The notes under the pieces are model-generated. The model was not told the DNA's origin. It did no database searches and saw nothing but the letters and a program-made list of their open reading frames with translations. A stretch of 64,000 nucleotides of DNA from Candidatus Aminicenantota bacterium. Lineage in GTDB: Bacteria; Acidobacteriota; Aminicenantia; Aminicenantales; Saccharicenantaceae. Location: assembly GCA_026393975.1 (NCBI GenBank), contig JAPKZD010000014.1, positions 1 through 64,000 on the forward strand, given 5' to 3'. Both the position numbers and the translations under genes were made by a program. Below are positions 14,688 through 37,151 of this stretch, in pieces; within the stretch, counting starts at the first letter, position 1; the number at the start of each line of letters is the position of its first letter.

Positions 14688-15689
14688 TTACCACCGGATG
14701 AAGGCCGACGCCCAGGTGTAGCCCGACCCGAAGGCGGTCAGGGCGATCAGGTTCCCCCGCTTGATCCGGCCCTCTTTCAGGGCCTCGTCGAGCGCGATGG
14801 GGATGGACGCGGCCGTGGTGTTGCCGAAGCGTTGGATGTTCCGGACGACCTTCTCCACCGGGATCTTGAGGCCCTTGGCGACCATGAGCGAAATCCGGTC
14901 GTTGGCTTGATGGGGGATGAGGGCGTCGATGTCGTCGACGGTGAGGCCGTTCGCCTCGAGGCCCGCCCGGACGGCTTCGGGCATGCGCTGGCAGGCGTTG
15001 ACGAACACGTTCCGGCCGTCCATTTTCGGGAAGAACCGGCCCTCGTCGAAAAACTCGCGCTGAAAGGTTGGGTTGTCCATGGGGCAGGGCTTTTCCATCC
15101 AGAGATGGGCGGCGAAACGGCCGTCGGAGAAGAGGTGCGTCGACAGGATGCCACGCCCGTCGTCCTTCCCGTTCGGCTCGAGGATGACGGCCCCGGCGCC
15201 GTCGCCGAAGAGCACGGACATGTCCCGGCCCTGATCGGAGAAGTCGAGGTTCGTCGATTGCACCTCGGCGGCGACGAGGAGGATCCTCTTGTAGGTACCC
15301 GCGCGGATGTACTGGTCGGCCGCGGACAGGGCGTAGATGAAGCCGCTGCACTGGTTGCGGACGTCCAGGGCGCCGATCGTGCCCAAGCCCAGCTTGGCCT
15401 GGACGAGGACCCCGATGCCGGGGAAATAGTGATCGGGGGAGAGGGTCGCGGCGACGATGAAGTCGATGGAGGAAGGCTCGATCTTCGCGTCGGCGATGGC
15501 CCGCCGGGCGGCCTCGACGGCCAGGTCGGACGTACCGACGCGCCCGTCGATGTGGTGGCGTTCGACGATGCCGCTCCGCTCGCGGATCCATTCGTCGGAC
15601 GTGTCCATGAGCTTTTCGAGGTCCTGGTTGGTGACGACCCGGGGCGGAACGTAGTGGCCGGTTCCGGTGATGATCGTTCGCGTATTCAT
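14688..15689 (-). CDS. fabH: 3-oxoacyl-ACP synthase III (KAS III)
   Basis: A 333-residue condensing enzyme that starts acyl chains by joining acyl-CoA to malonyl-ACP. The catalytic triad is visible: Cys114 in VRNQCSGF, His in PHQAND and Asn in GNTTAAS. SGIVERHHI and the terminal FGSGYTWASAFIRW are typical. The ATG at 15689 is chosen because the family starts at this point and because upstream ATGs overlap a TATAAT on the same strand. It lies 61 bases downstream of an SDR gene and near a serine palmitoyltransferase-like gene, so it could serve general fatty-acid synthesis or a dedicated lipid. The sequence does not decide. Confidence 0.9.
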   Translation of the reverse strand: MNTRTIITGTGHYVPPRVVTNQDLEKLMDTSDEWIRERSGIVERHHIDGRVGTSDLAVEAARRAIADAKIEPSSIDFIVAATLSPDHYFPGIGVLVQAKLGLGTIGALDVRNQCSGFIYALSAADQYIRAGTYKRILLVAAEVQSTNLDFSDQGRDMSVLFGDGAGAVILEPNGKDDGRGILSTHLFSDGRFAAHLWMEKPCPMDNPTFQREFFDEGRFFPKMDGRNVFVNACQRMPEAVRAGLEANGLTVDDIDALIPHQANDRISLMVAKGLKIPVEKVVRNIQRFGNTTAASIPIALDEALKEGRIKRGNLIALTAFGSGYTWASAFIRW

Positions 15690-15699
15690 GGACATTTTC

Positions 15700-15705
15700 A
15701 TTATA
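15700..15705 (-). promoter_or_regulatory. fabH: -10 box close to fabH start
   Basis: TATAAT on the minus strand ends ten bases before the ATG at 15689. The predicted start of transcription is within about 3-4 bases of the start codon. The -35 region is weak. Confidence 0.4.
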
Positions 15706-15750
15706 GAGGAAGCCTCCGGAAAAATAAACAACGGGGCTCGCCGGCCGGCG

Positions 15751-16725
15751 TCAAAGCAGACCTTTCCAGAGATACCAGGCGATCGTCTCTCCCAGGCCTT
15801 CTTCAAGGGAAAAGCGGCTTTCGAAGCCGAGTCCTTGGCGGGCCTTGCGGACGTCAGCCACCCAACAGTCCGGCTTCATCTGCTTGTACTTGCTCACGCT
15901 GAGGGCGCTCGCCCCGCCGCCGAGACGGCCGATGCCCTCCGAGGCGGCCGAAGCCAGGTAGGCCGTCCAGAGGGGCAAGTGAACCCGGATGAGTTTTTTT
16001 CCAAGCAAGCCGGCCACGGTCCGGCCGATGTCTTCCCACGTGTAAATCCTGGGGTCGGCGATGTTGAAGACTTCTCCGCTCGGGATCCCGGGCTTCGCCG
16101 CCAGCAGAATAGCGCGGACGGCGTCCCGGACATAGAGGAGGCTCAAGGATTTGCGGCGCTGGCCGACCAGGGGCAGGATACCGCGCTTCATCCAGCGGAA
16201 GTACTCGAGGAAATCCTCGTCGCGGGGGCCGTAGACGGCGGCCGCCCTGAGGGTGACGACGGGGAAGCGGTCCTTGTACTTGAGGATCTCCGCCTCGGCC
16301 ATGAGCTTGCTCTCCCCGTAGGGGGAGACCGGGTGCGGCGGATCCCCCTCGCAGACCGGCCGCCGCGGCGTGGAGGGCCCTCCGGCGGCGATGCTGCCCA
16401 GGTGGACGAAGCGCGGGGCGCAGGACTGGCCCTCGAAGGCCCGGAGGAGATTTGCCGTCCCCTCCCGGTTTACGGTATAATACATGCTCGTTTTGAGAGT
16501 TTTGGTCAATCCGGCCAGGTGGAAGACGCAGTCCAGCCCGGCGGGCAAGGCCGGCAAGTTCTGCAGGTCGCCCGTGAGAAGATGGACGCGTTCGATTCCC
16601 TCGAGCCAGCGCAGCTTCGACGGGTTGCGGACGAGGGCGTAGACCTCCACCCCGGGTTCCTCGAGGAGGCGCTCGACGAGATGGCTCCCCAGGAAGCCCG
16701 TTCCACCGGTGACCAGGACCCGCAT
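15751..16725 (-). CDS. NAD-dependent epimerase/dehydratase-type SDR (ceramide-pathway candidate)
   Basis: A 324-residue extended short-chain dehydrogenase. The NAD(P) motif is VTGGTGFLGSHL at residues 4-15; the active site is YGESK (Tyr and Lys) with an upstream Ser in HLGSIAAGG. The middle has LDCVFHLAGLTK and VNREGTANLLRAF. The start at 16725 opens directly on the first beta strand and sits seven bases after a near-consensus -10. It is divergent from a serine palmitoyltransferase-like gene. In known bacterial sphingolipid loci an extended SDR reduces the 3-keto sphingoid product, which makes this a candidate for that step. A sugar epimerase or sterol-type dehydrogenase is the alternative. 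Confidence 0.8.
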   Translation of the reverse strand: MRVLVTGGTGFLGSHLVERLLEEPGVEVYALVRNPSKLRWLEGIERVHLLTGDLQNLPALPAGLDCVFHLAGLTKTLKTSMYYTVNREGTANLLRAFEGQSCAPRFVHLGSIAAGGPSTPRRPVCEGDPPHPVSPYGESKLMAEAEILKYKDRFPVVTLRAAAVYGPRDEDFLEYFRWMKRGILPLVGQRRKSLSLLYVRDAVRAILLAAKPGIPSGEVFNIADPRIYTWEDIGRTVAGLLGKKLIRVHLPLWTAYLASAASEGIGRLGGGASALSVSKYKQMKPDCWVADVRKARQGLGFESRFSLEEGLGETIAWYLWKGLL

Positions 16726-16732
16726 GACCCGG

Positions 16733-16761
16733 ATTGTATGAGATTCGGCCGCGGGGGTCAA
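16733..16761 (-). promoter_or_regulatory. Strong promoter at SDR start codon
   Basis: On the minus strand TTGACC (16756-16761), a 17-base spacer and TACAAT (16733-16738) lie seven bases before the ATG at 16725. Transcription should begin at or next to the ATG, giving a leaderless message. Confidence 0.6.
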
Positions 16762-16801
16762 TGAGGCCGCCGGGCATCTCTCGGAGTCAAAGGAGACAAT
16801 C

Positions 16802-17983
16802 GTGGACCTTTTCGACAAGTGCTTGGCCTTTACCCGGGCGGACGAGCTTAAGGCGGCGGACCTCTATCCCTATTTCATCCCTATCCAAGAGGCCGTCGGG
16901 AACCGGATCACGGTCAACGGCCATCCCATGATCATGGTTGGGTCGAACAACTACCTCGGCCTGGCCGACCATCCGAAAGCCAAGGCGGCCGCCCGGGAGG
17001 CGGTCGACCGCTACGGCGTCGGGACCTGCGGCTCCCGGTTCCTGACCGGCACGATCGACCTGCATGAAAAGCTCGAGGAGCGGCTGGCAAAATTCATGAA
17101 CCGCGAGGCCGCCCTGACCTTCAGCACGGGCTACCAGACGAACCTGGGCATCATATCCGCGATCGCGGGCAAGGGCGACCACATCATCATCGACCGCATG
17201 GTCCATGCCAGCATCATCGACGCCTGCCGGCTGTCTTTCGCCACGGTCCACAAGTACAGGCACAATAGCATGAAGGACCTCGACCGGATCCTGGCTTCAC
17301 TCGACCCCGGCGCGGGCAAGCTTATCGTTGTCGACGGCGTCTTCAGCATGGAGGGCGACATCGCAGACCTGCCGGGCATCGTCCCCCTGGCCCGAAAATA
17401 CGGCGCCCGCATCCTCGTCGACGACGCCCACGGCATCGGCGTCCTCGGCGCGAACGGCCGCGGCACGGCCGAGCATTTCGGCCTCGAAAAGGACATTGAC
17501 CTGGTCATGGGCACATTCAGCAAGACCTTTGCCTCGATCGGCGGGGTCGTCGTCGGCGACGCGAAGATCATCTCTTTCATCAAGCATCACGCCCGGTCGC
17601 TGATCTTCAGCGCCGCGGCGACGCCCGGTTCCATCTCCTCCGTCCTGGCCATCCTGGACATGCTCGAGACACAACCCGAGCTGCGGACCCGCCTTTGGGC
17701 CATCACGGAGAGGATGCGAACGAGCTACCAGGCCATGGGCTACGACACCGGCCGGTCCCGGACGCCGATTATCCCGATCCTCGTCCACGACGACGAGAAG
17801 TGCTTCATGCTCTGGCGGCTCTTAAGGGAGGAAGGGATCTTCACGACGCCCGTCGTCTATCCCGCCGTCCCGCACGGCCATGCCCTCATCCGGACGAGCT
17901 ACGGGGCCGGCCACACCGACGAAGAGCTGGACACGATCCTGGCGGCCTTCGAGAAATGCGGCAAAGCTCTGGAGATCATTTGA
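16802..17983 (+). CDS. Serine palmitoyltransferase-like alpha-oxoamine synthase
   Basis: A 393-residue PLP enzyme of the alpha-oxoamine synthase family, which condenses an amino acid with an acyl thioester. The PLP lysine is Lys241 in MGTFSKTFASIGG; His135 (MVHAS) stacks on PLP; VDDAHGIG holds Asp208 and His210. SRFLTGTIDLH, FSTGYQTNLG and VDGVFSMEGD closely follow, from memory, Bacteroides-type serine palmitoyltransferases more than biotin KAPA synthases, and no biotin genes are nearby. Start is GTG. The gene diverges from an extended SDR and a KAS III, which supports sphingoid-base synthesis. A KAPA synthase or glycine C-acetyltransferase role is not excluded. Confidence 0.85.
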   Translation: MDLFDKCLAFTRADELKAADLYPYFIPIQEAVGNRITVNGHPMIMVGSNNYLGLADHPKAKAAAREAVDRYGVGTCGSRFLTGTIDLHEKLEERLAKFMNREAALTFSTGYQTNLGIISAIAGKGDHIIIDRMVHASIIDACRLSFATVHKYRHNSMKDLDRILASLDPGAGKLIVVDGVFSMEGDIADLPGIVPLARKYGARILVDDAHGIGVLGANGRGTAEHFGLEKDIDLVMGTFSKTFASIGGVVVGDAKIISFIKHHARSLIFSAAATPGSISSVLAILDMLETQPELRTRLWAITERMRTSYQAMGYDTGRSRTPIIPILVHDDEKCFMLWRLLREEGIFTTPVVYPAVPHGHALIRTSYGAGHTDEELDTILAAFEKCGKALEII

Positions 17984-36198: not shown

Positions 36199-36669
36199 AT
36201 GAAAATCCATCAAGGCAAGCTCCAGGCCAAAGGGTTCAGGGTCGCGATCGTGGTCAGCCGCTTCAACAGCTTCATCTCGGAGCGGCTCCTCGAAGGCGCC
36301 CTGGAAGCCCTCCAGAAAATGGGGGCCCAGGAGGCCGACCTGACGGTCTACAAGGTGCCGGGCTCTTTCGAAGTGCCGCTCGTCGCCAAGAAGATCGCCA
36401 AGGCCAAGGCGGCCGACGGCATCCTCTGCATCGGCGCCCTCATCCGCGGGGACACGCCCCATTTCGATTTCCTCGGCGCCGAGGTCATCAAGGGGCTGGC
36501 CCAGATCGCCATGGAGGACGGCGTTCCCGTCTCATTCGGCATCCTGACCGTCGACACCGTCGAGCAGGGCATCGAGCGGGCCGGGACCAAGTCGGGCAAT
36601 AAGGGTTACGACGCCGCCTTCTCGCTCATCGAGACGCTGAGCATGATCAAGGAGGCGGGCCTCCGCTGA
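36199..36669 (+). CDS. ribH: 6,7-dimethyl-8-ribityllumazine synthase
   Basis: A 156-residue enzyme making the last riboflavin precursor from the pyrimidinedione and butanone phosphate. Substrate-site blocks: VVSRFNSFISERLLEGALEA, YKVPGSFEVP, IRGDTPHFDF (active-site His) and TVDTVEQGIERAG. Good RBS (GGAGAA). Normal length, probably assembling into a 60-mer or decamer. Other rib genes are not in the window. It leads a plus-strand run to nusB and lysS. Confidence 0.95.
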   Translation: MKIHQGKLQAKGFRVAIVVSRFNSFISERLLEGALEALQKMGAQEADLTVYKVPGSFEVPLVAKKIAKAKAADGILCIGALIRGDTPHFDFLGAEVIKGLAQIAMEDGVPVSFGILTVDTVEQGIERAGTKSGNKGYDAAFSLIETLSMIKEAGLR

Positions 36670-36689
36670 GCGGTTGACCGGGTCGAGCC

Positions 36690-37143
36690 ATGGGACAACG
36701 CCGTAAAGCGCGGGAGTGCGCCCTCCAGATCCTGTTCCAGTTCGAGTTCAATACCGGCGATCCCAAGGCCCTCGTCAAGGTCTACTGGGAACACCAGAAA
36801 GCGTCGTCCGAGGTCCGGAAATATGGGACTTGGATCGTCGAGGAGATCATCGCCCACGGGGAGGACATCGACCGGGCCATCCAGTCGGCCTCGAAGAACT
36901 GGCGCCTCTCCCGCATGGCCGTCATCGACCGGAATATCCTGAGGATCGCGGTTGCGGAGCTCCTCTACGAAAAGACGCTTGCCCCGGCCATCATCATGAA
37001 CGAAGCGATCGAGGTCGCCAAGCGCTACAGCGGCGAAGAGTCCGCCGTGTTCGTCAACGGGGTCCTCGACGCCGTGGGGCGGCTGCTCAAGGAGAAAGCC
37101 GGCAAGCCGGGAACGGCGGCCGGGCCGGGCAAAGAAGGTGAGC

Positions 37144-37151
<8 letters not shown>
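36690..37151 (+). CDS. nusB: Transcription antitermination factor NusB
   Basis: A 153-residue helical protein that binds boxA RNA with S10 in rRNA antitermination. Typical blocks are RRKARECALQILFQFEFN at the N-terminus, WRLSRMAVIDRNILRIAVAEL and AIEVAKRYSGEESAVFVNGVLDAV. 20 bases follow ribH, the usual neighbour. Its last codons overlap the lysS start by eight bases. The C-terminus is Gly/Ala-rich and less conserved. Confidence 0.95.

What the first reader, a model, noticed from the sequence alone, without database searches (positions are those of the whole stretch)
15751..17983. Candidate sphingoid-base locus: SPT-like enzyme divergent from an extended SDR and KAS III
The 16802-17983 enzyme has the alpha-oxoamine synthase core (Lys241, His135) and, from memory, follows Bacteroides-type serine palmitoyltransferases along its length (SRFLTGTIDLH, VDGVFSMEGD, MGTFSKTFASIGG). 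Its divergent neighbours are an extended SDR, as in known bacterial ceramide loci, and a KAS III. No biotin genes are near. Sphingolipids are not a textbook trait of this type of bacterium.
Basis: partly seen in the sequence, partly recalled or inferred. Interest (0 to 1): 0.6.

Follow-up and report, generated by a model that had tools for sequence, protein, structure and literature searches.

The report
Sphingolipid gene pair in Aminicenantes bacterium
An uncultured bacterium of the Aminicenantes group carries a gene pair that very probably starts sphingolipid synthesis; this fits recent evidence that such lipids are widespread in bacteria, but the usual third enzyme has been lost from its normal place in this genome.

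Summary
Window 16802-17983 is an intact alpha-oxoamine synthase (AOS), divergent from an extended SDR (15751-16725), with a KAS III beyond it. The genome is a Candidatus Aminicenantes (Acidobacteriota) MAG. The AOS is Spt-like: its nearest solved relative is Sphingobacterium serine palmitoyltransferase, active-site residues are kept, and Ala271 sits where SulA has Lys, Kbl Asn/Thr and BioF Thr. It falls in a 100/100 clade with proven Spts; joining it to Kbl or to BioF is rejected (p about 0.01). The genome has no BioB above cut-off, and two separate true Kbl. The SDR is related (34-42%) to SDRs inside Spt-GNAT-SDR operons of several phyla, so a CerR-type reductase is likely. The KAS III is ordinary FabH, conserved whether or not the AOS is present. 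The third gene, a GNAT like bacterial ceramide synthase, sits before ribH-nusB in relatives but is missing there in this window; only a divergent GNAT remains in the genome. A second Spt-like paralogue (53%) lies elsewhere. Spt-like genes are already reported from 38 phyla and ceramides from an acidobacterium, so this is a new member of a known kind. No activity or lipid was measured.

The parts
16802..17983 (+). Spt-like alpha-oxoamine synthase (type A), 393 aa
   Evidence: 3A2B Spt 401 bits; Ala271 and catalytic residues; tree
15751..16725 (-). extended SDR, CerR-like candidate reductase
   Evidence: PF01370; 34-42% identical to SDRs of Spt-GNAT-SDR operons, YxxxK and GxxGxxG kept
16726..16801 (.). 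76-bp spacer between the divergent SDR and AOS starts; presumably holds both promoters
   Evidence: coordinates and the conserved SDR start; promoter not tested
14688..15689 (-). KAS III, FabH: neighbour, judged not a specific part of the pathway
   Evidence: over both FabH model cut-offs; conserved without the AOS
36199..37151 (+). ribH (start approximate) and nusB; site just before ribH where relatives carry the GNAT, absent here

Best explanation
The 16802-17983 enzyme is a bacterial serine palmitoyltransferase-like AOS. PLP on Lys241 binds an amino acid (most likely serine, possibly alanine or glycine), which is condensed with a long-chain acyl-CoA or acyl-ACP with loss of CO2, giving a 3-keto sphingoid base. 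The divergent SDR is the CerR-type reductase of that keto group, acting before or after N-acylation. They are two of the three genes of the Spt / GNAT ceramide synthase / CerR set that recurs across Acidobacteriota and other phyla. In this genome the usual GNAT is missing from its syntenic place, so N-acylation would need the divergent GNAT on contig 15 or an enzyme not found, or does not happen. Shown: homology, residues, phylogeny, linkage, absence of the GNAT at its site. Inferred: activity, substrates, order of steps, end product.
For: Closest solved protein is S. multivorum Spt, 401 bits, against 264 for cysteate acyltransferase, 261 for Kbl, 209 for BioF. Residue signature NHDHK-A-R equals Spt; Kbl has Asn or Thr and BioF Thr at the Ala position. 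Clade with proven Spts at 100/100; joining type A to Kbl/ThAOS or to BioF rejected, p 0.0104 and 0.0108. Spt, GNAT and SDR together in 10 of 20 Acidobacteriota loci, SDR in 13, and in Nitrospirota, Rubrobacter and Aureispira. SDR divergent from AOS also in other families of the class. No BioB above cut-off; two other proteins fill the Kbl role.
Against: The curated Spt cut-off is not reached (501 of 640 bits), although operon-linked Nitrospirota Spt also misses it (570 bits). The ceramide-synthase-like GNAT of relatives is absent from its site and only a divergent one is in the genome. The SDR stays at the locus in relatives that lack type A. Caulobacter CerR and bCerS could not be fetched for direct comparison.
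Confidence: 0.8

Rival explanations
1. The AOS is KAPA synthase (BioF) or glycine C-acetyltransferase (Kbl), serving biotin synthesis or threonine breakdown.
For: Same superfamily; 388 bits to BioF and 385 to a Kbl model. The deep branching inside the Spt group is unresolved: type A could be its deepest branch (p 0.097 and 0.24).
Against: Below both cut-offs (426 and 460); Ala271 instead of Thr or Asn; no BioB above cut-off; two other Kbl over cut-off; AU tests.
Confidence: 0.05
2. The AOS is an Spt-type enzyme for a related but different lipid: cysteate (sulfonolipid), or alanine/glycine (1-deoxysphingolipid), or a secondary metabolite.
For: Spt-like AOS also occur in polyketide clusters (Methylocystis plasmid), and SulA-type AOS occur in relatives. 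Amino acid choice cannot be read from the sequence.
Against: Cysteate is unlikely: Ala271, not the Lys of SulA, and 264 bits to cysteate acyltransferase against 401 to Spt. No biosynthetic cluster surrounds it.
Confidence: 0.12
3. The SDR is an unrelated housekeeping epimerase or reductase that merely adjoins the AOS.
For: It is kept at the locus without type A in 14 relatives; its nearest solved structures are sugar epimerases, though weakly (62 bits).
Against: Its relatives sit next to Spt in several phyla in different gene orders; most relatives without type A have type B, so an Spt to serve remains.
Confidence: 0.2

Closest known systems
Serine palmitoyltransferase of Sphingobacterium multivorum (3A2B) and of Bacteroidales
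   Same: Full-length homology, all catalytic residues, Ala at the SulA-diagnostic site, same clade
   Different: About 44-49% identical; below the curated Bacteroidota Spt cut-off; next to an SDR, where Bacteroidales Spt is beside a diacylglycerol kinase family gene
Spt-GNAT-SDR (Spt/bCerS/CerR) operons of Nitrospirota, Rubrobacter and other Acidobacteriota
   Same: Same AOS clade and same SDR family, adjacent
   Different: The GNAT is missing from the locus, and from its usual place elsewhere in this window
Caulobacter ceramide genes spt, cerR, bcerS (PMC11087976, PMC11324152)
   Same: Predicted roles of AOS and SDR
BT_0972 3-ketosphinganine reductase of Bacteroides (PMC9278070)
   Same: Proposed to reduce the same kind of keto group
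   Different: BT_0972 is described with a GxxxGxG motif and similarity to yeast Tsc10; the window SDR is of the extended, epimerase-like type

Membership tests
Bacterial serine palmitoyltransferase (Spt) | AOS catalytic residues (Asn52, His138, Asp210, His213, Lys244, Arg367 of SmSPT) | tested here: met
   Asn49, His135, Asp207, His210, Lys241, Arg364
Bacterial serine palmitoyltransferase (Spt) | Ala at the site where SulA has Lys281 | tested here: met
   Ala271; rule from PMC9304779
Bacterial serine palmitoyltransferase (Spt) | Groups with biochemically proven Spt and not with BioF or Kbl | tested here: met
   100/100 branch; AU p 0.0104 and 0.0108
Bacterial serine palmitoyltransferase (Spt) | Curated equivalog cut-off (NF047600, 640 bits) | tested here: not met
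   501 bits; no equivalog cut-off of any AOS model is reached
Bacterial serine palmitoyltransferase (Spt) | Serine- and acyl-thioester-dependent 3-ketosphinganine formation | not testable with these tools
   needs an enzyme assay
Bacterial ceramide gene set (Spt, bCerS, CerR) | CerR-type SDR present | tested here: met
   34-42% identity to operon-linked SDRs; not compared with Caulobacter CerR itself
Bacterial ceramide gene set (Spt, bCerS, CerR) | bCerS-type N-acyltransferase present | tested here: inconclusive
   close GNAT absent; one divergent GNAT at C15:61775-62890, 253 bits
KAPA synthase (BioF) | BioF cut-off and a biotin pathway in the genome | tested here: not met
   388 of 426 bits; no BioB over cut-off
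Glycine C-acetyltransferase (Kbl) | Kbl cut-off | tested here: not met
   385 of 460 bits; two other genes pass it
Cysteate acyltransferase (SulA/CapA) | Lys at the SulA 281 position | tested here: not met
   Ala271
FabH (KAS III, 14688-15689) | Curated FabH model cut-off | tested here: met
   377 of 249 and 360 of 292 bits

The most novel reading that the evidence does not exclude
A lineage inside the Aminicenantes has dropped the standard bacterial ceramide synthase while keeping two Spt-like enzymes and the reductase, so its sphingoid bases are left free, are acylated by a different kind of enzyme, or become a lipid not yet described.
Probability: 0.25. Interest if true: 0.5.

Novelty: new member of a known kind. 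Interest (0 to 1): 0.33.

Why it matters
It extends the predicted sphingolipid gene set, with residue, tree and linkage evidence, to an uncultured class and to much of Acidobacteriota. That bears on who makes the ceramides seen in soils and sediments. The stepwise loss of one gene within a genus is a natural comparison for working out which enzyme acylates the base.

Tried and rejected
KAPA synthase, Kbl and SulA were considered and rejected. KAS III as a sphingoid-specific partner was rejected: FabH by curated model and independent of the AOS. A first AU test that put type A together with all BioF/Kbl/ThAOS rows was not significant (p 0.097, with more rows 0.24). That arrangement equals type A being the deepest Spt-like branch, so narrower tests were run. 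The candidate ceramide synthase was sought through operon neighbours, not through a remembered Pfam family. SulA could not be put into the tree because only the best five structure alignments are printed; the diagnostic residue was used instead. The 2022 paper on bacterial ceramide synthesis and the 2024 paper on Solibacter ceramides are not held and are known here only through citations. AasR/AcpR-type genes were not searched for.

Full report
What was checked. Aligned to Sphingobacterium multivorum Spt, it keeps Asn49, His135, Asp207, His210, Lys241 and Arg364, the residues for PLP and substrate binding. The divergent neighbour is an extended SDR whose conserved start is at 16725, leaving 76 bp between the two starts. 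The KAS III at 14688-15689 lies outside the stated range.

Which organism. Whole-genome search places the window in a 2.95-Mb genome in 25 contigs, 95% complete. Named close relatives are Candidatus Aminicenantes MAGs (AOS 85-92% identical), so the phylum is Acidobacteriota.

What the enzyme is. The best solved relative is Spt of S. multivorum (3A2B, 401 bits), ahead of ThAOS (306), cysteate acyltransferase (264), Kbl (261) and BioF (209). The best curated model is the Bacteroidota Spt model at 501 bits; its cut-off of 640 is not reached, nor is any other AOS equivalog cut-off. Operon-linked Spt from Nitrospirota also fails that cut-off, at 570 bits. The most telling residue is Ala271. The SulA paper states that the Spt and SulA active sites differ only there, Ala in Spt and Lys in SulA (PMC9304779). 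In my alignments Kbl has Asn or Thr, BioF and ThAOS have Thr, and all Spts and operon-linked Spts have Ala. Five SulA-like proteins found in relatives have the Lys, which serves as a positive control.

Tree. With 51 sequences, one branch with 100/100 support separates proven Spts (S. multivorum, S. wittichii), Bacteroidales Spts, all operon-linked Spts, type A (the window gene and its orthologues) and type B from BioF, Kbl and ThAOS. Trees forcing type A together with Kbl/ThAOS alone or with BioF alone are rejected (p 0.0104 and 0.0108). The branching inside the Spt group is unresolved, and type A could be its deepest branch. Biotin synthase is absent above cut-off from the genome, and two other proteins are the genome's Kbl, over cut-off.

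The neighbours. In named records outside the phylum, AOS relatives sit beside an extended SDR and a GNAT protein: SDR-AOS-GNAT in a Nitrospirota MAG (L086) and AOS-GNAT in Calditrichaceae and Caldisericaceae MAGs (L087, L088), AOS-GNAT-SDR on a Rubrobacter plasmid, and an SDR divergent from AOS followed by the GNAT on an Aureispira plasmid. The window SDR is 34-42% identical to these SDRs along its length. In 20 Spt-like loci of other members of the phylum, the SDR is adjacent or near in 13, the GNAT in 11, both in 10. In Caulobacter, spt, an N-acyltransferase and a dehydrogenase are needed for ceramide (PMC11324152; PMC11087976); the GNAT and the SDR are the expected counterparts. I could not fetch the Caulobacter proteins themselves, so this step rests on context.

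What is missing. A profile of the GNAT family finds close copies (405-486 bits) in most relatives. In G016, G018, G001, G008, G013 and G027 the gene lies in the region homologous to this same window, about 26 kb from the AOS in the genomes that have both on one contig, next to nusB, and directly before ribH-nusB in the two I read closely. In this window ribH-nusB is present without the GNAT, and no remnant is seen. The only GNAT of the family left in the genome is divergent (253 bits, C15:61775-62890), near fatty-acid synthesis genes. Presence at the same place in many relatives argues for loss and not gain. Among 40 genomes of the order type A and this GNAT co-occur in 17 of 20, against 8 of 20 without type A (Fisher p 0.008, not corrected for relatedness).

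Type A and type B. Five genomes of the genus, this one included, have both type A and a second Spt-like gene of 53% identity (here C22:50014-51132); most other genomes have one of the two. Where type A is absent from the locus, the SDR, KAS III and flanks remain in place. Type B keeps the same residue signature. The simplest reading is two partly redundant enzymes with a shared reductase. That is inference.

KAS III. It passes the FabH models, its only paralogue is 34% identical, and it is conserved with or without the AOS. It is best read as ordinary fatty-acid initiation.

Compared with what is known. A study of the Black Sea reports Spt-like genes in 38 bacterial phyla and notes that CerR and bCerS are often not co-localised with them (PMC11334938). 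[quoted passage not shown] title only seen). No paper in the library mentions Aminicenantes together with sphingolipids. So the locus is a new member of a known kind, in a lineage not named in what I could read. The less ordinary part is the loss of the usual ceramide-synthase-like gene with Spt and reductase kept.

Limits. No enzyme or lipid was measured. The genome is a MAG. CerR and bCerS assignments are by homology to operon neighbours.

Noticed in passing
L119:6398-7639, L145:6766-7977, L146:5978-7204, L147:5694-6899, L148:5895-7127: Other Aminicenantes genomes of the order carry SulA/CapA-type AOS (62-65% identical to each other) with the SulA-diagnostic Lys; L119 matches cysteate acyltransferase 28EH at 363 bits against 238 for Spt. 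L119 and L148 have a bCerS-like GNAT next door. Candidate sulfonolipid genes outside Bacteroidota.
   Followed up: partly
L005:7988-9226 (G000:C22:50014-51132): Second Spt-like gene (type B, 53% identical) in the window's genome, next to an arginine-deiminase/DDAH-like gene and, within the genus, an ECF sigma factor gene.
   Followed up: partly
L083:6001-7185: A type A AOS 75% identical to the window's in a MAG labelled Syntrophobacterales, with unrelated neighbours and no adjacent SDR: horizontal transfer or mislabelled bin.
   Followed up: no
L006:7660-8871 and 15021-16277 (G000:C15): Two Kbl paralogues over the curated cut-off about 6 kb apart, with an AcpS-like gene and an acetate-CoA ligase between them.
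   Followed up: no
L092:8001-9215: A Priestia megaterium plasmid carries an Spt-like AOS (50% identical, Ala at the diagnostic site) beside an acyltransferase and a methyltransferase gene, unusual for Bacillota.
   Followed up: no
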